From: Streptomyces spinosisporus
GTDB taxonomy: Bacteria; Actinomycetota; Actinomycetes; Streptomycetales; Streptomycetaceae
NCBI RefSeq assembly: GCF_022698145.1
Contig: NZ_JALDAX010000005.1
Location: forward strand, 496,001 to 560,000
DNA length: 64,000 nucleotides
Direction of reading: 5' to 3'
Below, piece by piece: positions 32,977-43,158 of this stretch. Each line of letters opens with the position of its first letter. The stretch's first letter is position 1. The position numbers were made by a program, and so were the translations under genes. The notes under the pieces are model-generated. The model was not told the origin of the DNA. It saw only the letters and a list, made by a program, of their open reading frames with translations, and made no database searches.

Positions 32977-34224
32977 CTAGGCCAAGGCCCGGGCAAGGTA
33001 GGGGTTCGCTGCGGGGCGGACGCGCAGTCCGAGGGAGGCGGTGGCTGCGGCCAGGGTCATCGCGTACGAGTCGACGGCGCGCCGCACGTTCGGGGCGTCG
33101 AGGCCTGCTCCCGTCACCAGACGGTCGAGGTCGACGTAGGCGGACCGCACGATCTCGATCCACCGGTAGACACGCCAGTCCCGTAGCCAGTCCTTCGTGT
33201 ACTGGGCTGGAAGCAGCCTCTCCCAACGACGGAACATGCGGTCCCGGATCTCCGGCCGCGTGGGCGTCAGATGCATGTGCCGGACCAGGTCGTAGAGAGG
33301 GTCACCGACAAGGGCCATCTCCCAGTCGATGATCGTCAGGGCCAGGGCGTCGTCGCGGCGGACGAGGTTCCACGGGTTGAGGTCGCCGTGCAGCAGGGCC
33401 GGCGCCCGGTGGCTGACCGTGTGCCGTCTCAGGATCTGCGCCAGCCAGTCTGCGTCGGGCAGTCCCAGAACACGCGCCAGTTGCTGCGACTCCTTCGGCA
33501 ACCCCCGTACGAGTTCCACCAATTGATCGCTCAGCCAGCCGTAGAAGCGCCCCTGGCCGGCGAGCGGGTCGACCTGGAGGTAGTCGACTTTCGTCAGGGC
33601 ACAGAGCTGGTCGACCAGCTTGTCGGCCTCACGTGGCAGCAGGCCGTTCACCGGATGGTCGGGCGACTGGTGGTCACGATCGGGCCCGGCGTAGGTGTGG
33701 ATCGCGAAGCGTGAGCCTTCGTGGCTCCAGCCCAGCGCCAGGATCCTCGGAGCCGCCACCTCGACGTTCGACTTCTCGATGGCGCCCAGCACCGCATGCT
33801 CGGAGAGGAAGCCGCGCTCACGCCGCCGCACACCGGGCACCACACGCCTCACCACCACGCAGGAGTCATGGTCCGGCACCCTCACCACCGTGTTGACGTG
33901 GGCGGTCCCCTTGAACACGCGGCTGGCCGGTGCCGCGGCCTCGGCCCGAAGGGCATCGCTGACGGCCTGCTGGGGGAAGTCCGGGCGCTCGAGAACCCGC
34001 TCGTCACGCTGCCAGTCGGAGCCCAGGGTGTACAGGTTGAGCCCGCTGCCCGTACGGGAGGCCCGCCACCGGAAGAGGATCTGCTCGATCGCGCCCTCGC
34101 TCGGCACCTTCGCCAGCCGAAGCGGCTCCGCCGCGGCCTCCAGGGCACGCAGCACCGCCTGCGTCGCCGCGTCCAGGCCCTTCTGGTCGATCGGCCCCTC
34201 GAGGGTCTGGGCCGCGCGCATCAC
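32977..34224 (-). CDS. APH-fold phosphotransferase, first of three in tandem (long form)
   Basis: A 415-residue kinase-like protein. The N-terminal ~95 residues (GLDAATQAVLRALEAAAEPLRL) are extra relative to its neighbours. The kinase core has the catalytic loop LLHGDLNPWNLVRRDD and the metal-binding DWE motif IIDWEMALVGDPLYDLVRHM. APH/ChoK-like enzymes phosphorylate small molecules; substrate unknown, and nothing here specifically indicates an antibiotic. Its start is 6 nt after the stop of the next APH gene, forming an operon. Start is ATG 34222-34224 or the following ATG. Confidence 0.85.
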   Translation of the reverse strand: MMRAAQTLEGPIDQKGLDAATQAVLRALEAAAEPLRLAKVPSEGAIEQILFRWRASRTGSGLNLYTLGSDWQRDERVLERPDFPQQAVSDALRAEAAAPASRVFKGTAHVNTVVRVPDHDSCVVVRRVVPGVRRRERGFLSEHAVLGAIEKSNVEVAAPRILALGWSHEGSRFAIHTYAGPDRDHQSPDHPVNGLLPREADKLVDQLCALTKVDYLQVDPLAGQGRFYGWLSDQLVELVRGLPKESQQLARVLGLPDADWLAQILRRHTVSHRAPALLHGDLNPWNLVRRDDALALTIIDWEMALVGDPLYDLVRHMHLTPTRPEIRDRMFRRWERLLPAQYTKDWLRDWRVYRWIEIVRSAYVDLDRLVTGAGLDAPNVRRAVDSYAMTLAAATASLGLRVRPAANPYLARALA

Positions 34225-34230
34225 GTCGGG

Positions 34231-35067
34231 TTAGACGGACTGGGCTCGTTCGAAGGCGACGTAATGGCGCAGGTCCTTGGTCGCACCGTTCACGGCTGCC
34301 GGCCGGACCCTCTCCATGGCATCGGCCCACGCGGACACCACCTCGTCCCACTGGTGGTCGGGATACTGCATCCGGACCAGGTGAGTGGCCAGATCGTGCA
34401 GAGGGTCGCCGTAGGTGGCCAGCTCCCAGTCCACGCAGATGAGGGGCGAATCACCGCCGTACGACATGATCAGGTTGTCGCGGTGCAGGTCGGCGTGGAG
34501 CAGGCTGTAGGGACGCGCCGCCATGGCCGGTACCCGCTCGGCCAGCCGGCTCAACGCGTCCTCCGGGATGCCGAGCGCCGCGAACAGACTCTTGAAGGCC
34601 GGCCAGTTGGGCTTTCTGATGTGCGAGTCCGCCCGCATCGCGAACGTCCGCAGGAAACCCTGACTGTCCGTGTGGTCGCTGGGCCAGCCGGGCGGCAGTG
34701 GCGGCAGCTTCTTCACGGGCACCTGCGTCATTGCCGCGAGGAGGTCGGCCAGTGCCTTCATGAGCAGGGTGTCGACGGGCTTGCCGTTCCCGCAGACACT
34801 CGAAAGGGGTACGCCCTCCACGTAGCTGTGGATGGCGAATCCTCGCCCTTGGAACAGACATTCCGGCACGTGGGGGAGGACACCCTTGACGGCCCGAAGG
34901 ATCTCCGCCTCGTCCTCCCAGGTCCTGATCACCACAGGGAGAGCCTCAGTGCGCCGAATACGCACAGTGACAGAAGTGCCTAGATCACGATTTAACAACC
35001 GTGCCATGGGAACGGTCAGCGGCAGCACGTAGTTCTGGTTGTGAAAGCCATTGCTCGCCTGCCCCAT
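34231..35067 (-). CDS. APH-fold phosphotransferase, second in tandem; N-terminus probably frameshifted
   Basis: A 278-residue kinase-like protein from the ATG at 35065-35067. The core has LLHADLHRDNLIMS and CVDWELATYGDPLHDLATHL. The N-terminus starts abruptly at MGQASNGFHNQNYVL. In the adjacent frame an open segment beginning at ATG 35144-35146 reads MYGANPAPVSAVPSEVV and ends FAARRENG exactly at the GGGG run (complement of 35062-35065). Removing one G would join it to QASNGFHNQNYVL, giving ~304 residues. That hidden start also has TACGAT 6 nt upstream. The ATG used here has an AGGGA only 4 nt away. Paralogous to both flanking APH genes. Confidence 0.75.
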   Translation of the reverse strand: MGQASNGFHNQNYVLPLTVPMARLLNRDLGTSVTVRIRRTEALPVVIRTWEDEAEILRAVKGVLPHVPECLFQGRGFAIHSYVEGVPLSSVCGNGKPVDTLLMKALADLLAAMTQVPVKKLPPLPPGWPSDHTDSQGFLRTFAMRADSHIRKPNWPAFKSLFAALGIPEDALSRLAERVPAMAARPYSLLHADLHRDNLIMSYGGDSPLICVDWELATYGDPLHDLATHLVRMQYPDHQWDEVVSAWADAMERVRPAAVNGATKDLRHYVAFERAQSV

Positions 35068-35362
35068 TTTCCCTGCGCGCCGCGAAGACCTGATAGACGA
35101 CCTCAGACGGCACCGCGCTGACGGGCGCAGGGTTCGCGCCGTACATGCACCAATCGTAGGCCTCGTTAGAACAATAAATATGAACACCCTCCCTGGCCAA
35201 GGAAGAGCGAGCAAAAGGTGCACCCACAGGCCACTCCGGGTGTGCTCGAGCTGTCGGCAGAGCCAGGATCCAAGCATACGAACATACGACCAAGTCGCAC
35301 ATGTGATGCCTGTGGTCTCAGTGGTGGTCTCAGCGGTATTGGTGACTTGGTGTCAAAAGTTG

Positions 35363-36481
35363 TCAGAAGCGGTCAGGTTCAGGCGCGCTAGACACTCTTT
35401 CCGCCATTGGCTGGTCTTGTGTCCGTAGCCAGCGAGTGAGCGCACTCGTGATCTCTGAATGACTCCGCGTCCTGTCGAGGCCGAGCGGCTCGGCCGCATT
35501 CTCCAGAATCTTCTGGAGTCTCCAGGCCTCCCACGGGAGGCGGCGCACCCGGTTGAAGCTCGTTTCCTCATGAAGAGACAACGCGATACGAATGACATCC
35601 GTGAATACCGACTGCGCCCGCTTGAAGTCGAGGATCAGCGGCAGATCATTTTCCCAACCGTATGAGCTTCCGGACCGGATGCCTTCGACGACTCTGCACC
35701 ATTCCTGAGTCATCCGGTTCTTCTGATCCTCCGGGTAGCGCATCAGGTAGAGATGGGTTGCCAGATCGTAGAGAGGATCACCCAACATCGCCAACTCCCA
35801 GTCGATAGCCCAGAGAAGGCCTTGAGAATCGACGACCATGTTCTTGCGATGCAAATCCGCATGGAGAAGACAGAAAGGACGCCTCCGCAACCCGCTCACG
35901 CTCTTTCTGAGCCGAGCGAAGGACTCCCTGTACTCGATTCCCAGCTCCCCGAACAGACCGGCGAACCGAGCACTGTTCTTCGTGTAGACGTTGTCTTCGA
36001 TGAAGACGATCAGCCGTTCCAGGAAGCCGTCTGTGTCGCCGTCATCGGGGCGATCCTTCTCCTCGCAGCGGCGCTCCACGCTGAGCATGTCCGGGGTGAT
36101 CCGCACCATCTCCCGGAAGAGGTCCAGGATCTGGTCGAACACCGCGTCGGTGACGCGTCGGCCGGCCCAGCGACGAGACCTGAGCGTCCGCCCCTCGATG
36201 AACCCCTGCATGCTCATGCCCGCCACGTCGAGGATGTCGGGAATGCGCGTGACATGACCCTTTAGAGCACGAAGGAGTTGCTCCTCCGACCTGAAGCACC
36301 GCCGGTCGTACCAAAGGATCTCGGCGCGCGGCTCCCGGAACTTGACGGTCCGTGATCCGTCCGGGAGAGCCAGCACATAGGTCTCGTGGTGGTACCCCTT
36401 GAGGGGGCCCTTCAGCACGCTCGCGTCACGGCTCACCTGCTCGGCTCGCTGCCGAGTGCCGGAGACCAGTTGGGGAGTCAT
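35363..36481 (-). CDS. APH-fold phosphotransferase, third in tandem
   Basis: A 372-residue kinase-like protein. An ATP-lid segment near LPDGSRTVKFREPRAEILWY is followed by the catalytic loop LLHADLHRKNMVVD and AIDWELAMLGDPLYDLATHLYLMRYP, nearly the same phrases as in its downstream neighbour, so the pair arose by duplication. The C-terminal ~100 residues (HEETSFNRVRRLPWEAWRLQKIL) are unique. Base composition is visibly more A/T rich than the window average. The ATG at 36479-36481 was chosen over a TTG ten codons upstream; neither has a good ribosome site. It is divergent from a HAD phosphatase gene, a possible kinase/phosphatase pair. Confidence 0.82.
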   Translation of the reverse strand: MTPQLVSGTRQRAEQVSRDASVLKGPLKGYHHETYVLALPDGSRTVKFREPRAEILWYDRRCFRSEEQLLRALKGHVTRIPDILDVAGMSMQGFIEGRTLRSRRWAGRRVTDAVFDQILDLFREMVRITPDMLSVERRCEEKDRPDDGDTDGFLERLIVFIEDNVYTKNSARFAGLFGELGIEYRESFARLRKSVSGLRRRPFCLLHADLHRKNMVVDSQGLLWAIDWELAMLGDPLYDLATHLYLMRYPEDQKNRMTQEWCRVVEGIRSGSSYGWENDLPLILDFKRAQSVFTDVIRIALSLHEETSFNRVRRLPWEAWRLQKILENAAEPLGLDRTRSHSEITSALTRWLRTQDQPMAERVSSAPEPDRF

Positions 36482-36724
36482 TCTCAGAGTGCAACCGTTC
36501 CGAGGAACCAACGGGGTAAGGGGTGACGCACATTACTCCTGTGACGTCAAGTAGCGACGAAGAACCCCTGCATTGGGCAGTCCCATCGCCGTGACGGGCG
36601 ATCCTGCGCAAGGGCGACCGAGTCCCGCAAGGGGTGAACATACGTTCAGGCCCAGTCCTGACCTGTGGCGTTGGTAACGCAGAACACTTTTGGGACAGAC
36701 TGTCGCCTCGACCGAGGAGGCCTG

Positions 36725-37486
36725 TTGGCAGACGTGACCGAAGACCAGGATGCGGTGGTGGACCTACTTGGTTCCACGCGGGCCGTCCTCTTCGACTTCG
36801 ACGGCCCGATCTGCGATCTCTTCGGGGCCGCATCCACTGCCCACGTTGCTGACAGGGTCAAGCAGGAGGCCCGTCGGGAGTGGAAGGGGCTCGACCCCAG
36901 CGTCGAAACCTGCGACGACTCGCACGGCATCCTGCGCGTTCTTCGGGAGATGTACGACGGGTGCAGCCCAGCACCCACCGACCTTCCACTCAGACTGGCA
37001 GAGAAAATCGTCGCAGAATTCGAGTCCCTGGCGGGTGTGACCGCGAAGAAGGCGCCACACGTCGTCCCCCTCGTGGACCTGCTCCTCGAACTAGGCATCC
37101 GTCTGGTGATCGTGAGCAACAATGCGGAGAGCCCGATTCAGGAGTACCTCGAAGAGCACGGCATGAAGAGCAAGTTCGAGATGATTTCCGGCCGGGATCC
37201 GTACAACGCGAACCTGATGAAACCGCATCCCCATTGCGTGGAGCGTGCTCTCGATCACCTTTCACTGCCACCTTCTTCCTGCCTCCTGATCGGAGATCAG
37301 CTCACCGACCTCACAGCGGCGCAGAAAGCTGGAACGCTATTCCTCGGGTACACCCAGAACGAGGTCCGGGCCAAGGAGATGAAACACAACGGTGCGAATG
37401 CCGTGGTCTCCTCGCACCTTGCTCTCATTACGGCTGCTCGAGAACTTCTCGCTCGCCGGAGAGCGTCGGCTGCGCCGGCTCGGTGA
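36725..37486 (+). CDS. HAD-family hydrolase, DevB paralogue
   Basis: A ~253-residue HAD phosphatase with motif I VLFDFDGPICDLFG, motif II IVSNNAESP, the Lys in NLMKPHPHC and motif IV LIGDQLTDLTAAQKAG; a helical cap lies between motifs I and II. Motif I and the C-terminal half closely match the DevB-like HAD encoded at 39561-40301. Start is uncertain: a GAGGAGG site (36714-36720) precedes TTG at 36725 (4 nt) and GTG at 36734 (13 nt). The last 59 nt overlap the convergent GntR gene. Likely acts on a small phosphorylated metabolite. Confidence 0.85.
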   Translation: MADVTEDQDAVVDLLGSTRAVLFDFDGPICDLFGAASTAHVADRVKQEARREWKGLDPSVETCDDSHGILRVLREMYDGCSPAPTDLPLRLAEKIVAEFESLAGVTAKKAPHVVPLVDLLLELGIRLVIVSNNAESPIQEYLEEHGMKSKFEMISGRDPYNANLMKPHPHCVERALDHLSLPPSSCLLIGDQLTDLTAAQKAGTLFLGYTQNEVRAKEMKHNGANAVVSSHLALITAARELLARRRASAAPAR

Positions 37487-38348
37487 GGAGATCCCAGGCG
37501 GAGTCGAACCAGTCCTGCCAGCTGTTCACGAACACCGTTCCCTGAGAATTTGAATTATCGTCCTTCACGTGGTGTGTGAGTCCGGCAGCTGGACCGACCA
37601 CGTCGAGAGCGTCCTCGATCTCCCCGCCCTCTTCCAGCACTATGGTTCGCTTCTTGGCCTTGTAGGGGCCGAGCACTGCCTCAGTTCCGTTGAGGAGATA
37701 GAGCTTGAACGGCGGTATCAACTGCACCCTACGGATTTCCAGGCCAGCAGAGGACACCAGTTCTTCCGCTTCTAGACTGCGCAGCACGGAGCGTACGGAG
37801 GTGGTGTACCTCCTCAAGAGCCCTAAATACCGCTCTCTCAAAACGTCATCCTGGCGGCCATCTTCGGTGCGCCAATAGGGAAGCCAGAGTGATTCAGAAG
37901 GCAGCAGCATGCGCAGGGCGATGCGCTTGGGGGCGATCTGCCCGCCCCGTATCCGCTCCGCCTGCAGACGAAGGTGCGCCTCCAGCGACTCGGAGGTCAG
38001 CGTGAAGACGTCCATGGTCACCGTGGACCGTTCAAATGCGTGCTCGATGATCGGCCGCAAGCTGACCATTCCGTCGGCACTCTTGCTGCTCGTCGGGGAG
38101 TGGACCTGCTGCACCCAGACGACCTTGGAACCCTGCCCCTGACGGGTCTTGATCCAGCCGTCGTTCATCAGCTCCCTGAGCACGCGCTGCACCGTATCGC
38201 GGGAGACGTTGAACTCCTTGGCCAGCTCACGCTGCGCAGGCAGGAACGACTCGAGGGGATAGGTTCCGTCGGCCATACGCGCCCGCAGCGCACCCGCGAC
38301 GCGCTCGAATTCCCTGCCGCCGCCATCGCCGATACTGCCCTCGCTCAC
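37428..38348 (-). CDS. DevA-like GntR regulator (copy 1), divergent from a small membrane gene
   Basis: A 306-residue regulator with N-terminal GntR winged helix (about 15-80; FLPAQRELAKEFNVSRDTVQRVLRELMNDGWIKTRQGQGSKVV) and a ~210-residue C-terminal domain shared with the other three GntR proteins here: DVFTLTSESLEAHLRLQAERI, IALRMLLPSES, FKLYLLNGTEAVLGPY and WQDWFDSAWDLL. The GTG at 38346-38348 was chosen because TACTGT lies exactly 6 nt upstream, as in the other two divergent paralogues, suggesting a leaderless mRNA; an in-frame TTG at 38396 overlaps the upstream palindrome. Two palindromes lie between it and the small membrane gene at 38519. Confidence 0.85.
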   Translation of the reverse strand: MSEGSIGDGGGREFERVAGALRARMADGTYPLESFLPAQRELAKEFNVSRDTVQRVLRELMNDGWIKTRQGQGSKVVWVQQVHSPTSSKSADGMVSLRPIIEHAFERSTVTMDVFTLTSESLEAHLRLQAERIRGGQIAPKRIALRMLLPSESLWLPYWRTEDGRQDDVLRERYLGLLRRYTTSVRSVLRSLEAEELVSSAGLEIRRVQLIPPFKLYLLNGTEAVLGPYKAKKRTIVLEEGGEIEDALDVVGPAAGLTHHVKDDNSNSQGTVFVNSWQDWFDSAWDLLTEPAQPTLSGEREVLEQP

Positions 38349-38389
38349 ACGGCGACAGTACCCCTCCTCGGCCTCTGGCGAACCATTTT

Positions 38390-38417
38390 CAGTCAAGTCG
38401 GCAGCCCAACTTGACTG
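38390..38417. promoter_or_regulatory. Palindromic operator, 9-bp arms with 10-bp spacer
   Basis: CAGTCAAGT (38390-38398) and its exact complement ACTTGACTG (38409-38417), upstream of the -10 of GntR copy 1. Candidate autoregulatory operator. Confidence 0.65.
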
Positions 38418-38462
38418 CTGGTTAAGGGATCAACAAGCCGGGAAGAACCAGATTACGTCAAG

Positions 38463-38478
38463 CAGTCCAATTGGACTG
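38463..38478. promoter_or_regulatory. 16-bp perfect palindrome CAGTCCAATTGGACTG
   Basis: Perfect, without spacer, and flanked by TCAAG (38458-38462) and CTTGA (38482-38486), so the symmetry extends over 29 bp. It lies 41 nt before the small membrane gene start at 38519 and shares the CAGTC arm with the palindrome at 38390. Confidence 0.7.
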
Positions 38479-38518
38479 GAACTTGATCGCTTCTCAGGAA
38501 GTGTTCGCTGGGGGTGTC

Positions 38519-38701
38519 ATGATCGCCTTGCAACTGCTGTGCACCGTCTTCCTCATGGGGCTGGACCAGTTGTTTCAGTCCCGGTTCGGCGCACTCGGCA
38601 TCCTGTGCCTGTTCCTCCTCGGAGTCGGAGTCCGGGCGCGGAACACGGCATGCCTTTCTGTCGGCGCCGTGGTCTTCGTCCTGCTGATGACACAGGCCTA
38701 G
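38519..38701 (+). CDS. Small membrane protein paired with GntR copy 1
   Basis: A 60-residue protein with two or three hydrophobic stretches: MIALQLLCTVFLMG, LGILCLFLLGVGV and VGAVVFVLLM. It shares with the 41383 and 42713 products the layout G(L/F)(D/E)Q at residue ~15, a charged/aromatic loop, LxVGxxAxN and GAVxxxLL. Family and function unknown. The ATG at 38519 follows GGGGG. Its TAG overlaps the stop of the convergent GntR copy 2 by three bases. Palindromes upstream imply control by GntR copy 1. Confidence 0.72.
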   Translation: MIALQLLCTVFLMGLDQLFQSRFGALGILCLFLLGVGVRARNTACLSVGAVVFVLLMTQA

Positions 38702-39564
38702 CCGGCCAGCCGATCCCACACCGAGTCGAACCAGCTCTGCATGCTGTCGACGAACACCGAGCCGGGAGAGTCGGGGTCGGTGTCCTGCACGTGATGAGTG
38801 AGCGTGGCCCCCAGCCCCAGGACGTCAAGAGCTGCCACCACCTCGCCGGGCTCGAACTCGATCTGACGCTCAATCACCTCGTACATGCCGTGCAGCGCTT
38901 CGACGCCGTTGAGCAGATACAGCTTGAACGTCGGGATCAGCGGCGCGTAGCGGATCTCGAGGTCGACTTCGTCGACCAGCTTCTCCGTCGTCAGATCCTG
39001 CAGCAGGCCGCGCAGAGAGTCCGTGTGCCGCTGCGTGATGGCGTTCAAGCGCTGCCGTGGACGCGGGTCGTCCTTGTCGTCGCTGAGCCGCGGATAGGGC
39101 AGGGGCAGCTCGGTGTCGGGCAGCACCATGCGCAGAGTGATGCGCTGCGGTTTGATCACGCGGCCGTGAATGCGCTCGGCCTGCAGACGGATATGCGCAT
39201 CCAGGGACTCCGAGGTCAACGTGAAGACGTCCAGGCTGACTTCGGGCTGCTCGAAGGCCTCGCTGATGAGCGGCCCCAGCGTTATGCCACGCCGCGTCCT
39301 GCTGGCTTTGGGAGTCGACGACTGGATGCGCTGGATCTTGACCACTCGTGACCCACTGCCCTGCCGCGACTCGATCCAGCCTTCGTTGGCCAACTCCCGC
39401 AGTGCGCGCTGAACCGTGTCCCGGGAGACTCCGAACTCCTCGGCCAGATCACGCTGCGAGGGCAGAAAGTGTCCCAACGCGTATGTGTTGTCGGTCATCC
39501 GGGCGCGGAGCTCGTCGGACACCCGCTGGAACTCCCTGCCCTCTTTCCGCGGTTCCGCGTTCAC
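38698..39564 (-). CDS. DevA-like GntR regulator (copy 2), co-transcribed with devB
   Basis: A 288-residue GntR regulator with winged helix (FLPSQRDLAEEFGVSRDTVQRALRELANEGWIESRQGSGSRVV) and the same C-terminal sensor domain as copy 1 (DVFTLTSESLDAHIRLQAERI, FKLYLLNGVEALHGMY, MQSWFDSVWDRL); copies 1 and 2 form one subgroup and DevA/DevE another. The GTG at 39562-39564 overlaps the devB stop by 3 nt (GTGA), the best evidence for the start; another GTG lies five codons upstream. It is the third gene of the operon devA-devB-copy 2 and has no small membrane gene of its own. Confidence 0.85.
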   Translation of the reverse strand: MNAEPRKEGREFQRVSDELRARMTDNTYALGHFLPSQRDLAEEFGVSRDTVQRALRELANEGWIESRQGSGSRVVKIQRIQSSTPKASRTRRGITLGPLISEAFEQPEVSLDVFTLTSESLDAHIRLQAERIHGRVIKPQRITLRMVLPDTELPLPYPRLSDDKDDPRPRQRLNAITQRHTDSLRGLLQDLTTEKLVDEVDLEIRYAPLIPTFKLYLLNGVEALHGMYEVIERQIEFEPGEVVAALDVLGLGATLTHHVQDTDPDSPGSVFVDSMQSWFDSVWDRLAG

Positions 39565-40301
39565 GAGACGTGATCCCACAGCACCCGCAACACCGGCAGC
39601 AACGACCCGACGATATGGCGAGCGCCCTCGACCTTCAACTGCTGTGCCTTGTGGGCGTTACGCGCGTAGCCCAGAAACGGCACCCCGGCCTCCTTCGCCG
39701 CCCTCAGGTCGGTCGGAGAGTCGCCAATCATCAATGCGGCGTCAGGAGCGGCCCCCATCGCGTTCAGGGCTCGATTGAGGCAGTGCGGGTTCGGCTTCAG
39801 GAGATCAAGGTCGTTGGTACGGCCGTAGACATGTGGGGAGAAGCAGTCGGACAGGCCACGGCCGGAGAGGTAGTCGGAGACTGTGCGGGGGGAGTTGTTG
39901 GTGGCCACTGCAAGCCGACTACCGACGGCGGACCAGGTGCGTATCAGGGGATCGGCGTATTCCGTCGGCATCGCCGAGGTGATCGCCTTGAGCTCCTGCT
40001 GAGTGAGTCTCTCCTCGAGCTCGGCCACCAGATCGCTGTGTGGATGGCGCCGGTTGACGGCGTACAGCACGGCCATTGGGTCCGGATGGCTCCGTTCCTC
40101 CTCGGTCAGCAGCTCGCGCAGCCCCTGTCGCTCCAGCCAGGCGACGAGATCTTTCGCCACCTCTTCCGCCGTGTGCCCTGCGAACAATCGACAGATCGGG
40201 CCATCGAAGTCGAACAGGACAAAACGGGCTCTGGTGACCAGTTCTCGCAGGTTGCCTGCCTCTACTGCCACCGGTTCAGTCTGCTTCGCATCAGGTGTCA
40301 C
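39561..40301 (-). CDS. devB: HAD-family phosphatase DevB
   Basis: A 246-residue HAD hydrolase with motif I FVLFDFDGPICRLFAG, motif II AVATNNSPR, Lys in LLKPNPHC and motif IV LMIGDSPTDLRAAKEAG. In S. coelicolor the gene directly downstream of devA encodes such a putative hydrolase (devB) and is needed for normal development; the position here is identical. Its GTG at 40299-40301 shares one base with the devA stop, indicating translational coupling. Substrate unknown. The paralogue at 36725 suggests family expansion. Confidence 0.82.
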   Translation of the reverse strand: MTPDAKQTEPVAVEAGNLRELVTRARFVLFDFDGPICRLFAGHTAEEVAKDLVAWLERQGLRELLTEEERSHPDPMAVLYAVNRRHPHSDLVAELEERLTQQELKAITSAMPTEYADPLIRTWSAVGSRLAVATNNSPRTVSDYLSGRGLSDCFSPHVYGRTNDLDLLKPNPHCLNRALNAMGAAPDAALMIGDSPTDLRAAKEAGVPFLGYARNAHKAQQLKVEGARHIVGSLLPVLRVLWDHVS

Positions 40302-41173
40302 TAGGAGAGTGTCAGGTCCGTCGTGATGGTTTCCCAGAGGGCGTCGAACCACTTCTGGGATTCCTCCACAAACGCCTCGTCGCGCTGGCCTGCCCGCTTC
40401 TCGAAGGAGAAGAGGAGCGACTCGGTGCCGAGGACGTCGTACATGTCCATCGTGCCGGAGTCCGTGGGCTCCTCCCGGCGCGTGATCATGTAGTACGCGA
40501 CCAGCGCCTCCGCGCCGTTGAGCAGGTACAGCTTCACGGGTGGGGTGAAGGGCAGGGCGCGGAATCTCACGTTGACGTCGACGTTGTGGGAGAAGCGCAG
40601 GGAGCGGAGGTTGTGGCGCAGCACGTGGCCCTGTGAGTTGCGCTGGGCGAGCCATCGCTCATGGACCGCGTCGTCGTCGGAGCGCCCCTCGACCGGGACG
40701 GGAAAGGCGAGGGAGATGTCGCGTGAGGGCAGCAGGATGCGGACGTCGATCGACTTCGGGCGGATGCGGCCCTCGTGGATCAAGCGAATCGGTTCCCCCA
40801 TGGCCAGCATCAGGGTCTCGGCGGTGAGGCATGCGGCGTCGACCCGTACGTTCTGTGCCGTGAACGCCTCCGTGAGTCGCGGAGCCAGCCCGACCATCGT
40901 CGGTTGCGGCTCGCCGACCTGCGCCGGCGGCTCCGCGATCCGTGGTGGGCTTCCCTTGCTCACATTGCTCAGCAACCCGTCTTCCTGGAGGGCGCGCAGG
41001 GCCTGGCGGACGGTGCCTCGTTCGACTCCGAACTCGTCGGCCAGTTCGGCCTGGGTGGGCAGGCGGTCTCCTGCCTTGAGGTCTCCGGCGCGGATACGTT
41101 CCCGCAGGATGTCGGCGATCTCCTGGGGCGAGAGTCTTCTGCTGCCGTTCACTGCCACGTTCTCCTGGGTCAC
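40301..41173 (-). CDS. devA: Developmental GntR-family regulator DevA
   Basis: A 290-residue regulator. The GntR winged helix (about 12-80) has LPTQAELADEFGVERGTVRQALRALQEDGLLSNVSKG; the sensor domain has LTAETLMLAMGEPIRLIHEGRIRPKSIDVRILLPSRDI, VKLYLLNGAEALVAYY and SQKWFDALWETI. It matches the DevA group, GntR proteins required for aerial hyphae and sporulation in S. coelicolor, and it has devB downstream as there. The GTG at 41171-41173 is preceded by TAGCGT and exactly 6 nt with no ribosome site, suggesting a leaderless mRNA. A GAGTTG half-site abuts that -10, fitting autoregulation. A later GTG (41152) with AGGAG is the alternative start. Confidence 0.85.
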   Translation of the reverse strand: MTQENVAVNGSRRLSPQEIADILRERIRAGDLKAGDRLPTQAELADEFGVERGTVRQALRALQEDGLLSNVSKGSPPRIAEPPAQVGEPQPTMVGLAPRLTEAFTAQNVRVDAACLTAETLMLAMGEPIRLIHEGRIRPKSIDVRILLPSRDISLAFPVPVEGRSDDDAVHERWLAQRNSQGHVLRHNLRSLRFSHNVDVNVRFRALPFTPPVKLYLLNGAEALVAYYMITRREEPTDSGTMDMYDVLGTESLLFSFEKRAGQRDEAFVEESQKWFDALWETITTDLTLS

Positions 41174-41259
41174 AACCAAACGCTACAACTCAGATCCATC
41201 TACAGGGAGTTGTTGGTGACTTGTTTATGAGTAGGCGCCAAGTGGGGACAACTAAAACA

Positions 41260-41276
41260 GAGTTGGTTGCCAACTC
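41260..41276. promoter_or_regulatory. Palindrome GAGTTGG-TTG-CCAACTC upstream of the small membrane gene
   Basis: Perfect 7-bp arms with a 3-nt spacer, immediately after a possible -10 (TAAAAC, 41253-41258). A further GAGTTGG half-site lies at 41281-41287, GAGTTG at 41207-41212, and CAACTC at 41186-41191 next to the devA -10. Most likely the DevA operator. Confidence 0.7.
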
Positions 41277-41382
41277 ACAAGAGTTGGCGGAAGGTTTGCT
41301 TCCTGTCCCAGTCCGCCTCCGCTCCCCTCGCACAACCCCCCACCGCACCGTCCCGCCCGCGCCGCCCGAAGGGGGAACCACC

Positions 41383-41571
41383 GTGCCTGCTCTCGCCCTC
41401 CTCTCCGCAGTCTTCGTCTTCGGCTTCGAGCAGATCGTCAGCTGGAAGTACGGCACCACCGGCATCATCGGCCTGCTGCTGCTCGCCGTAGGCATCAAGG
41501 CCAAGAACCCGGCGGTCAGCTCCATGGGGGCCGTAGTGCTCGCCCTGCTGGTCGCGGGGCCCGCTCTATGA
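41383..41571 (+). CDS. Small membrane protein paired with DevA
   Basis: A 62-residue protein with hydrophobic segments LALLSAVFVFGF, GIIGLLLLAVGI and GAVVLALLVAG and the shared motif FEQIVSWKYGTTGIIG. About half of its residues match the 42713 product. The GTG at 41383 follows GGGGGAACCACC; the frame extends upstream through the operator but without a ribosome site. It is divergent from devA with the GAGTTGG palindrome between, so it is probably a DevA target. Function unknown; there is no signal peptide or cysteine, and the charged loop (SWKYG) is the most conserved feature. Confidence 0.8.
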   Translation: MPALALLSAVFVFGFEQIVSWKYGTTGIIGLLLLAVGIKAKNPAVSSMGAVVLALLVAGPAL

Positions 41572-41616
41572 GCAGGGAAACGGCCTGGTCAGTCACTGTG
41601 GGAGACCGGGAGACCG

Positions 41617-42534
41617 TCAGCTCGTGAGCACCAGCTCCGAACTGATCGTCTCCCACAGTGCGTTGAACCACAGGTGCGACTGCTCCACGAACGTGGTGTC
41701 CCGCAGCCCGGCACCCTGCGCGAAGGCGAACAGCATCGACTGGGTGCCCTCCGCGTCGTACATCTCCAGCGGCTCGTGGTCGACCTCCTCCTCGCGTCGC
41801 GTGAGGGTGTAGTACGCGAAGAGCGCCTCCATGCCGTTGAGCAGGTAGAGCTTCACGGGGGGTGTGAAGGGCAGTGCGCGGAAGGCGACGTTCACCTCGA
41901 TGCCGTGCGTGGCCCGCAAAGCCAGCAGGTTGTGCCTGAGCACCTGGCCCTGGGCGTTGCGCTGGGCCAGCCAGCGGCGCTGCAGCCGGCCGTCCGCGGT
42001 CAGGTCCACCGGCGTCGGGAACGCGAGGTCGATGTCCCGGCTGGGCAGCAGGACCCGCACGTCGACCTTGGCCGGTTTTAGTCGCCCCTCGTGGATCCGG
42101 CGCAGCGGTTCCCCGATGGCGAGGGTGAGCGAGACCGAGGTCAGACACAGGGCGTCTATCTCGACGTGCGTGGCCGCGAAGGCGTCCTCTATGCGCGGCG
42201 CCAGGGCCACCATCGTCGGCAGCGGCGGAGCCCCGGGACCGGCCAGCGCCTTGCCGAGGCCCAGGTCAGGGGCGACGGTCGCGGGACTGCCCTTGGATAC
42301 GTTGGTCAGCAGGTGTTCCGACTGCAGAATGCGCAGCGCCTGGCGGACGGCGCCGCGCTCGACGCCGAACTCGTCGGCCAGGGTGGCCTGCGTGGGCATG
42401 CGTTGCCCCGGTCGCAGCTCGCCGGACCTGATACGCGCGCGCAGCTCGTCGGCCACGTCCTGGTGTGACGCCAGTGACGTCCGTGGCCGCTGTGACCTCT
42501 TCCGTCCATTGACGGAGGCGTGTTTCGGGTCCAC
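41617..42534 (-). CDS. devE: Developmental GntR-family regulator DevE (DevA paralogue)
   Basis: A 305-residue regulator very similar to DevA: winged helix MPTQATLADEFGVERGAVRQALRILQSEHLLTNVSKG, then LAIGEPLRRIHEGRLKPAKVDVRVLLPSRDI, VKLYLLNGMEALFAYY and SHLWFNALWETI. It has a longer linker after the wing. S. coelicolor encodes a DevA paralogue, DevE, two genes from devA; the spacing here is the same. The GTG at 42532-42534 is preceded by TAGTGT and 6 nt, the same leaderless layout as devA, with GAAGTTG directly upstream of the -10. Divergent from its own small membrane gene. Confidence 0.82.
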   Translation of the reverse strand: MDPKHASVNGRKRSQRPRTSLASHQDVADELRARIRSGELRPGQRMPTQATLADEFGVERGAVRQALRILQSEHLLTNVSKGSPATVAPDLGLGKALAGPGAPPLPTMVALAPRIEDAFAATHVEIDALCLTSVSLTLAIGEPLRRIHEGRLKPAKVDVRVLLPSRDIDLAFPTPVDLTADGRLQRRWLAQRNAQGQVLRHNLLALRATHGIEVNVAFRALPFTPPVKLYLLNGMEALFAYYTLTRREEEVDHEPLEMYDAEGTQSMLFAFAQGAGLRDTTFVEQSHLWFNALWETISSELVLTS

Positions 42535-42619
42535 GACCAAACACTACAACTTCCCGCCATCTTTGGGCAGTTCTCGGGAAGGTGGTTATAAGCCTCTTCC
42601 AAGAGGAGATAAGTACAGT

Positions 42620-42638
42620 GAAGTTGGTCACCAACTTC
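42620..42638. promoter_or_regulatory. 19-bp palindrome GAAGTTGGT-C-ACCAACTTC upstream of the small membrane gene
   Basis: Perfect 9-bp arms around one base, overlapping by one base the end of a possible -10 (TACAGT, 42615-42620). AACTTC half-sites recur at 42652 and at 42548-42553 next to the devE -10. Most likely the DevE operator; each arm has one more A than the DevA site. Confidence 0.72.
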
Positions 42639-42712
42639 AGCAACATGGTCAAACTTCAGGATGGTTGGCCGCAACCACGGGTCCGCCTCCCCGTCCCGAA
42701 GGAGGGACCGCC

Positions 42713-42898
42713 ATGCCGCTCATCGCCCTCGTTGTCGCCGCCCTCGCCATCGGATTCGAGCAGCTCGTCCAGTGGAAGTACGGACCTCTCGGCATCATCG
42801 CCTTCGTCGCGCTCACCGTGGGACTCAAGGCCAGGAACACCGCGATCAGCGGCTTCGGCGCGGTCATCCTCGTCATGCTGCTCGCCCAGTCCGGCTGA
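42713..42898 (+). CDS. Small membrane protein paired with DevE
   Basis: A 61-residue protein with hydrophobic segments LIALVVAALAIGF, GIIAFVALTVGL and GAVILVMLLAQ and the shared FEQLVQWKYGPLGIIA and VGLKARN motifs. The ATG at 42713 follows AGGAGGGA. The leader between palindrome and start resembles that of the 41383 gene (both contain GTCCGCCTCC), so gene, leader and operator were duplicated together with the regulator. A strong terminator follows 30 nt after the stop. Function unknown. Confidence 0.82.
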   Translation: MPLIALVVAALAIGFEQLVQWKYGPLGIIAFVALTVGLKARNTAISGFGAVILVMLLAQSG

Positions 42899-42971: not shown

Positions 42972-43001
42972 TCAGCACCAGCACAGCCACAACCGAACAC
43001 C

Positions 43002-43037
43002 GACAACTGAACAGAGAAAGACAACTGAACAGAGAAA
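43002..43037. repeat. Two perfect tandem copies of an 18-bp A-rich unit, with degenerate copies around
   Basis: GACAACTGAACAGAGAAA at 43002-43019 is repeated at 43020-43037. Degenerate ACAACTGAA-containing copies flank it from about 42988 to 43105. The low GC contrasts with both neighbours. The spacer lies between the small membrane gene terminator and the convergent acetyltransferase stop; no gene is seen in 42972-43158. Confidence 0.85.
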
Positions 43038-43158
43038 TCTGAACAGCGACAACTGAAGAGCTCCATCGGCACAGTCACAACTGAACAGCACAGCCACAAC
43101 TCAATACGCACCACAGCACAGCTACGGATGACCCATCAGCCGTCTAGCGAGAGGAGCC

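What the first reader, a model, noticed from the sequence alone, without database searches (positions are those of the whole stretch)
32977..42898. Expanded DevA-type island: four GntR regulators, three small membrane proteins, two HAD phosphatases and three APH kinases
The window directly shows four regulators sharing one unusual C-terminal domain, three ~60-residue membrane paralogues, two HAD enzymes with the same DFDGPIC motif, and three tandem APH-fold kinases. DevA, DevB and DevE are known developmental genes in S. coelicolor, but the small membrane proteins and the kinase/phosphatase additions are, to my knowledge, uncharacterised. A regulator plus membrane peptide plus phosphatase module copied several times suggests a signalling system tied to development, with a small phosphorylated ligand possibly made by the APH and removed by the HAD enzymes.
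Basis: partly seen in the sequence, partly recalled or inferred. Interest (0 to 1): 0.78.

Follow-up and report, generated by a model that had tools for sequence, protein, structure and literature searches.

The report
Streptomyces DevA-type regulator–phosphatase–kinase module cluster
This is an expanded copy of the known Streptomyces sporulation locus devA/devB/devC/devE, and comparison across genomes shows that a repressor, a phosphatase, a kinase and a tiny membrane protein travel together as one self-regulating unit, with the repressor's sensor domain predicted to be a dead phospholipase-D-like fold that could read a phosphorylated molecule.

Summary
The genes are real and sit at the stated coordinates. 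The locus is the known devE–devC–devA–devB region; a four-regulator version was already reported in S. sviceus (DevF/DevG), and devB and devC were already named. The three kinases are really one single kinase plus a double kinase split by an in-frame TAA (34231-34233).

New here:
In 32 whole genomes all 47 hits of the small-protein family and all 46 hits of the kinase family lie beside DevA-type regulators. Regulator plus HAD (plus an unrelated APH kinase in Micromonosporaceae) recurs on putative conjugative elements in other genera.
(2) The minimal unit is devC | regulator–HAD–kinase.
(3) Most regulator–devC gaps carry a palindrome: AGTTGG-N3-CCAACT for DevA/DevE, GTCCAATTGGAC for the other two. 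Exact copies occur nowhere else in this genome.
(4) The effector domain is predicted to be a catalytically dead PLD fold (HxK…D changed to xxK…N), not UTRA.
(5) Many islands carry a membrane-anchored protein with the same domain.

Best model: a local negative-feedback switch in which kinase and phosphatase set the level of a phosphate-bearing ligand read by the PLD-like domain, controlling devC. The ligand, DNA binding and DevC's action are inferred.

The parts
32977..34224 (-). APH1: second half of a double APH-fold kinase (begins with the C-terminal end of the first kinase domain)
   Evidence: PF01636 E=5.6e-25; same frame as APH2, separated by TAA; one long open frame in relatives
34231..34233 (-). 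in-frame TAA stop that splits the double kinase
   Evidence: sequence reads AQSV-TAA-PDVMRAA where relatives read FKRAQSVxTDVxRxA
34231..35277 (-). APH2: first half of the double APH-fold kinase (start uncertain)
   Evidence: PF01636 E=9.1e-25
35363..36511 (-). APH3: single APH-fold kinase, the type found in one-copy modules of other species (start uncertain)
   Evidence: PF01636 E=8.5e-18; catalytic residues invariant in family
36665..37486 (+). HAD2 phosphatase-like protein (start uncertain; domain from about 36743)
   Evidence: PF13419 E=3.6e-19; DFDGPIC; catalytic residues invariant in family
37428..38396 (-). GntR4: DevA-type regulator (probably the DevF/DevG kind)
   Evidence: PF00392; 56% to GntR3
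38463..38478 (.). predicted operator CAGTCCAATTGGACTG; the 12-mer core is unique in the genome
38519..38701 (+). devC-like small membrane protein, divergent from GntR4
38698..39579 (-). GntR3: DevA-type regulator, overlaps the 3' end of devB, probably same operon as devA-devB
   Evidence: PF00392
39561..40301 (-). devB: HAD phosphatase-like protein, translationally coupled to devA (TAGTG)
   Evidence: PF00702 E=3.9e-18; sequence
40301..41179 (-). devA: GntR regulator with PLD-like effector domain
   Evidence: PF00392; AF2 model pLDDT 92.8; Foldseek
41261..41275 (.). predicted DevA operator AGTTGGTTGCCAACT, followed by an overlapping second repeat to 41288
41383..41571 (+). devC: small membrane protein, divergent from devA
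41617..42540 (-). devE: GntR regulator, 61% identical to DevA
42622..42636 (.). predicted DevE operator AGTTGGTCACCAACT
42713..42898 (+). devC-like small membrane protein, divergent from devE

Best explanation
The locus is a cluster of diverged copies of one autoregulated module. Minimal form: devC (small membrane protein) divergent from an operon of a DevA-type GntR repressor, a HAD phosphatase and an APH-fold kinase. Shown: linkage, conservation, pairing of each regulator class with its own devC lineage, intact catalytic residues, a palindrome in most gaps between such pairs, and no exact copy of that palindrome elsewhere in the genome. Predicted: the regulator's C-terminal domain is a dead PLD fold that keeps the phosphate-site Lys and has Asn in place of Asp, so the dimer could bind a phosphate-bearing small molecule. 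Inferred: the kinase makes and the HAD removes that molecule (or the reverse); binding changes repression at the single operator, resetting regulator, HAD and kinase levels and gating DevC, which acts at the membrane during aerial growth and septation. The developmental effect would pass through devB/devC and local feedback rather than a large regulon. The extra copies (DevE, GntR3, GntR4) fall into two operator classes, so they can respond separately.
For: Linkage in 32 genomes: 47/47 devC and 46/46 kinase hits near DevA-type regulators, 32/33 top HAD hits. 67 orthologous loci: HAD 67, devC 66, APH 65; 14 of 16 one-regulator loci hold devC, regulator, HAD and APH. Operators: 71/86 exact DevA/E sites, 20/30 exact GntR3/4 sites, none exact in 6,800 shuffles; only two and one exact genome copies. 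DevC tree follows partner class: 5 changes against 67 shuffled. Fold: AF2 pLDDT 92.8/94.6, Foldseek to PLD-fold proteins; K(x4)N in 203/223. Independent regulator-HAD operons in 70/71 loci, plus a different APH kinase in 9 Micromonosporaceae loci. Known biology: DevA represses its own operon; devA, devB and devE mutants have developmental defects (PMC3187754).
Against: No ligand, enzyme activity or DNA binding is shown. The PLD assignment rests on predicted structures with modest TM-scores (about 0.3-0.46 on the query) and about 10-14% identity; no sequence-level PDB match. The element-borne operons lack devC, and in Streptomyces lack the kinase, so kinase and devC are not needed by every such system. 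The double kinase is interrupted here. HAD and APH could act on different substrates. About one in five to one in three gaps lack an exact palindrome.
Confidence: 0.45

Rival explanations
1. Membrane-coupled model: DevC binds the PLD-like domain and holds the regulator at the membrane, or the PLD-like domain reads a phospholipid head group; kinase and HAD tune the lipid or protein state rather than a soluble messenger.
For: A membrane-anchored protein (two TM segments plus the same PLD-like domain) sits in many of the same islands; nearest folds include PssA, the PLD relative F13 and the MITD1 PLD-like domain; devC is strictly paired with its regulator.
Against: DevC shows no detectable homology to the TM part of that anchored protein; the anchored protein is absent in the window and in many islands; element-borne regulators have no devC.
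Confidence: 0.2
2. Domesticated mobile-element control: the locus derives from a kil-kor-like regulator-HAD pair of actinomycete integrative conjugative elements, and devC replaces a transfer or spread membrane gene.
For: Relatives of the regulator-HAD pair lie beside FtsK/TraB-type genes in several genera; island GC is low here.
Against: Direction of transfer is not established; the known element repressor KorSA/SCO3932 has a UTRA domain, not this one; the dev locus is syntenic across 67 loci. This describes origin, not present function, and can be true together with the best explanation.
Confidence: 0.25
3. Resistance or detoxification: APH kinases inactivate an antibiotic-like metabolite, the regulator senses it, HAD is accessory.
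For: APH fold; weak NCBIfam similarity to drug kinases.
Against: Scores far below every curated cut-off; conserved chromosomal locus without transporter or biosynthetic genes; sporulation phenotypes of devA, devB and devE mutants.
Confidence: 0.08
4. Conflict or defence system in which the PLD-like domain is a sensor of invaders.
For: In the window's own genome a protein with another helix-turn-helix and this domain lies just upstream of pglY/brxC and pglZ; elsewhere the domain or the HAD is fused to or near SAV_2336-like/VMAP-C/caspase genes.
Against: No effector or nuclease in the dev locus; developmental phenotypes of the known genes.
Confidence: 0.05

Closest known systems
devA-devB-devC / devE locus of Streptomyces coelicolor (Clark & Hoskisson 2011, PMC3187754)
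   Same: Same regulator subfamily, devA-devB operon, divergent small devC, adjacent devE.
   Different: The parts of the paper read here do not describe the kinases, the operators, the effector fold, the membrane-anchored relative or the strict devC pairing.
S. sviceus four-copy devA locus (DevF SSEG00372, DevG SSEG00373; PMC3187754)
   Same: Four devA-like genes with two distant copies, as in the window.
   Different: Only the regulators were reported; whether the window is this species could not be determined.
HutC-type GntR regulators (YvoA, PhnF, KorSA/SCO3932)
   Same: GntR winged helix and local autoregulation.
   Different: They carry a UTRA domain; none is detected here.
TrmB/TrmBL2 archaeal regulators
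   Same: Winged helix plus a PLD-like non-catalytic domain (Foldseek match to TrmBL2; that its domain is PLD-like is from my own knowledge).
   Different: Different HTH family, no sequence similarity found in the sensor domain, no HAD/APH partners known to me.
CcrZ cell-cycle kinase (PMC9135335)
   Same: APH/choline-kinase fold protein tied to a cell-cycle decision, with a proposed small-molecule product.
   Different: Not known to be paired with a GntR regulator, HAD or small membrane protein; similarity here far below its family cut-off.

Membership tests
DevA subfamily of GntR regulators | GntR-type winged helix at the N terminus | tested here: met
   PF00392 above cut-off in all four
DevA subfamily of GntR regulators | C-terminal domain shared with DevA/DevE | tested here: met
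   Aligned over full length, 30-61% identity to DevA
DevA subfamily of GntR regulators | Gene context devA-devB operon with divergent devC | tested here: met
   met for devA; devE and GntR4 have devC only; GntR3 has no devC of its own
DevA subfamily of GntR regulators | Negative autoregulation | not testable with these tools
   Operators at conserved positions are consistent
HutC/UTRA GntR regulators | UTRA effector domain | tested here: not met
   No Pfam UTRA hit; the domain model alone matches PLD folds
PLD superfamily (as effector fold) | PLD fold | tested here: met
   Confident model (pLDDT 94.6, pTM 0.90) with Foldseek E down to 5e-5 against PLD-fold structures; TM-scores modest
PLD superfamily (as enzyme) | HxK(x)4D catalytic motif | tested here: not met
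   xxK(x)4N in 203 of 223 domains, no His at the motif
HAD phosphatases | DxD, motif II, Lys, GD...D catalytic residues | tested here: met
   D16, D18, K154, G178, D179, D183 invariant in 26 rows
APH-fold kinases | HxDxxxxN and D-W-E catalytic motifs | tested here: met
   H206, D208, N213, D226 invariant in 14 rows; the double kinase is split by a stop
kil-kor control of conjugative elements | Regulator next to transfer genes | tested here: not met
   Genes around the window's dev locus are chromosomal neighbours conserved in synteny, none identified as FtsK/TraB or integrase; transfer genes seen only by the element-borne relatives

The most novel reading that the evidence does not exclude
A previously undescribed actinobacterial second-messenger circuit: an APH-fold kinase writes and a HAD phosphatase erases a phosphorylated small molecule that is read by dead PLD-like domains in two formats, a DNA-binding repressor and a membrane-anchored receptor, with a dedicated small membrane protein as output, gating sporulation.
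Probability: 0.3. Interest if true: 0.88.

Novelty: new variant of a known kind. Interest (0 to 1): 0.62.

Why it matters
The metabolite sensed by DevA/DevE and the way devB affects development were stated as unknown in 2011. A predicted phosphate-site effector fold, a kinase that nearly always accompanies the locus, genome-unique operators and a strictly paired small protein turn that open question into a few direct tests: which substrate, which product, and does it lift DevA from one 15-bp site.

Tried and rejected
Homology of DevC to the TM part of the membrane-anchored PLD-like protein: hhalign probability 0.1, rejected. Sequence search of the effector domain in the PDB: no relative. A wide regulon for DevA/DevE: sites with up to one mismatch equal the reversed-pattern control (13 against 12), so there is no evidence for one. 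tRNA-anchored insertion of the island: no tRNA in the window. Identity of the element repressors with KorSA: rejected, KorSA-type proteins carry UTRA. A 2026 synteny paper on Streptomyces orphans does not mention devA.

Full report
OBSERVATION. ORF calling with codon-position GC, Pfam and alignments confirm the four GntR genes, three small hydrophobic paralogues, two HAD genes and three APH ORFs at the stated coordinates. devA's stop and devB's start overlap (TAGTG) and GntR3's start overlaps the end of devB, so devA-devB-gntR3 is probably one operon. devC copies lie divergent from GntR4, DevA and DevE. The two APH ORFs 32977-34224 and 34231-35277 are in one frame and split by TAA at 34231-34233 within a motif that is continuous in relatives; relatives hold two kinase domains in one open frame of about 750-800 codons. 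The region has 62-65% GC in an otherwise ~71% GC window.

WHAT IS ALREADY KNOWN. Clark & Hoskisson 2011 (PMC3187754) describe devA, devB (phosphatase-like; mutant conditionally bald), devC (small divergent ORF) and devE, negative autoregulation of devA, distinct sporulation phenotypes, and four devA-like genes in S. sviceus (DevF, DevG). The parts of the text I read do not mention the kinases. So the island, the HAD and the small protein are not new discoveries; the window is an expanded member of this known locus.

LINKAGE TEST. Of 200 genomes of the window's genus, 133 have a DevA-type hit at E<=1e-20. I fetched about 80 loci and annotated them with window proteins. Among 67 loci with the conserved GNAT and YgfZ neighbours, HAD is present in 67, devC in 66, APH in 65; regulator copies number 1 (16 loci), 2 (11), 3 (34) or 4 (6). 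In 14 of the 16 one-copy loci the content is devC divergent from a regulator with HAD and APH, which I take as the minimal module. Because those loci were chosen by the regulator, I also searched 32 whole genomes for each family on its own: all 47 devC hits and all 46 kinase hits lie within 5 kb of a DevA-type regulator; 32 of the 33 best HAD hits do too, the exception being one genome without a detected regulator. Genomes without the dev locus had neither devC nor kinase (0 of 7; Fisher p 2e-6 and 3e-7, not corrected for relatedness).

INDEPENDENT CONTEXTS. A second branch of the regulator sits on what look like integrative conjugative elements (FtsK/TraB-type neighbours). Scanning named genomes gave 71 such loci in Streptomyces, Kitasatospora, Streptacidiphilus, Actinoplanes, Dactylosporangium, Actinokineospora and others; 70 have the HAD gene directly downstream, the one exception being cut by a contig end. 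In nine Micromonosporaceae loci a third gene follows, an APH-fold kinase (PF01636 in the two tested) that is not detected by the dev-locus kinase model. Regulator-HAD thus looks like the older pair; the kinase association arose at least twice by this reading; devC is specific to the dev locus in the genomes searched.

OPERATORS. In 136 regulator-devC gaps, DevA/DevE gaps carry AGTTGG-N3-CCAACT (71 of 86 exact, 6 with one mismatch) and GntR3/4 gaps carry GTCCAATTGGAC (20 of 30 exact, 6 with one mismatch); neither class carries the other's site and none of 6,800 shuffles gave an exact match. In the window's own 9.4-Mb genome the exact DevA/DevE site occurs only at 41261-41275 and 42622-42636 and the other core only at 38465-38476. 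Near-matches equal the reversed control, so I see no sign of a larger regulon. Binding is not shown. A tree of 128 DevC proteins needs 5 changes of partner class against 67 in shuffles (61 columns, many forks unresolved): each devC lineage stays with its own regulator lineage.

EFFECTOR DOMAIN. Pfam and NCBIfam recognise only the winged helix. AlphaFold2 on 93 relatives gives pLDDT 92.8 and 94.6 for the domain alone. Foldseek finds PLD-superfamily structures: F13, PssA, PLD, SauUSI, Zucchini, the MITD1 domain, and TrmBL2 for the full protein. TM-scores are modest and identity about 10%. The sequence has xxK(x4)N(x6)G where PLDs have HxK(x4)D(x6)G: the catalytic His is gone, Lys and an Asn remain in 203 of 223 domains (the register of the motif against PLD is from my own knowledge of the family, not a structural superposition). 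This predicts a non-catalytic pocket able to hold phosphate. HAD and APH catalytic residues are invariant.

MEMBRANE-ANCHORED RELATIVE. Nearly twenty fetched loci, most of them dev islands with the gene between the double kinase and the TetR gene, encode two TM segments followed by the same PLD-like domain. It is missing from the window. The TM part is not detectably related to DevC.

MECHANISM. Shown: linkage, pairing, conserved sites, intact active-site residues. Inferred: repression at those sites, a phosphate-bearing ligand controlled by kinase and HAD, DevC as membrane output. CcrZ (PMC9135335) is a precedent for an APH-fold kinase acting in a cell-cycle decision through a proposed small-molecule product. 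Rivals are listed separately; the mobile-element origin is compatible with the mechanism.

LIMITS.

Noticed in passing
L009:9662-10594 (own genome, contig C1), with L009:10819-17666: A protein with a different helix-turn-helix N terminus and the same PLD-like C-terminal domain lies immediately upstream of pglY/brxC and pglZ genes (PADLOC BrxC E=0, PglZ 2e-274), suggesting the domain also regulates a BREX/Pgl-type defence locus.
   Followed up: partly
L010:6082-7002, L021:12950-13873, L033:6254-7144 and others: Two TM segments fused to the PLD-like domain, in many dev islands but not in the window; no Pfam family.
   Followed up: partly
window 34231-34233: In-frame TAA splits a double kinase that is intact in relatives: recent mutation, sequencing error or re-initiated pair.
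   Followed up: partly
L169:4556-7837 and L075:10433-14763: DevB-like HAD domain at the end of a 1093-aa protein beside a MoxR-like ATPase gene, and a PLD-like domain at the end of a SAV_2336-like protein beside a caspase/VMAP-C protein: the same modules reused in putative conflict systems.
   Followed up: no
L098-L168, upstream of the regulator: Element-borne regulators have their own conserved palindromes (ACCTGCTTAAGCAGGT; TGGCTAGCCA), unlike those of the dev locus.
   Followed up: partly
window 42980-43115: Repeated ACAACTGAACAG-like motifs downstream of the last devC gene; unexplained.
   Followed up: no
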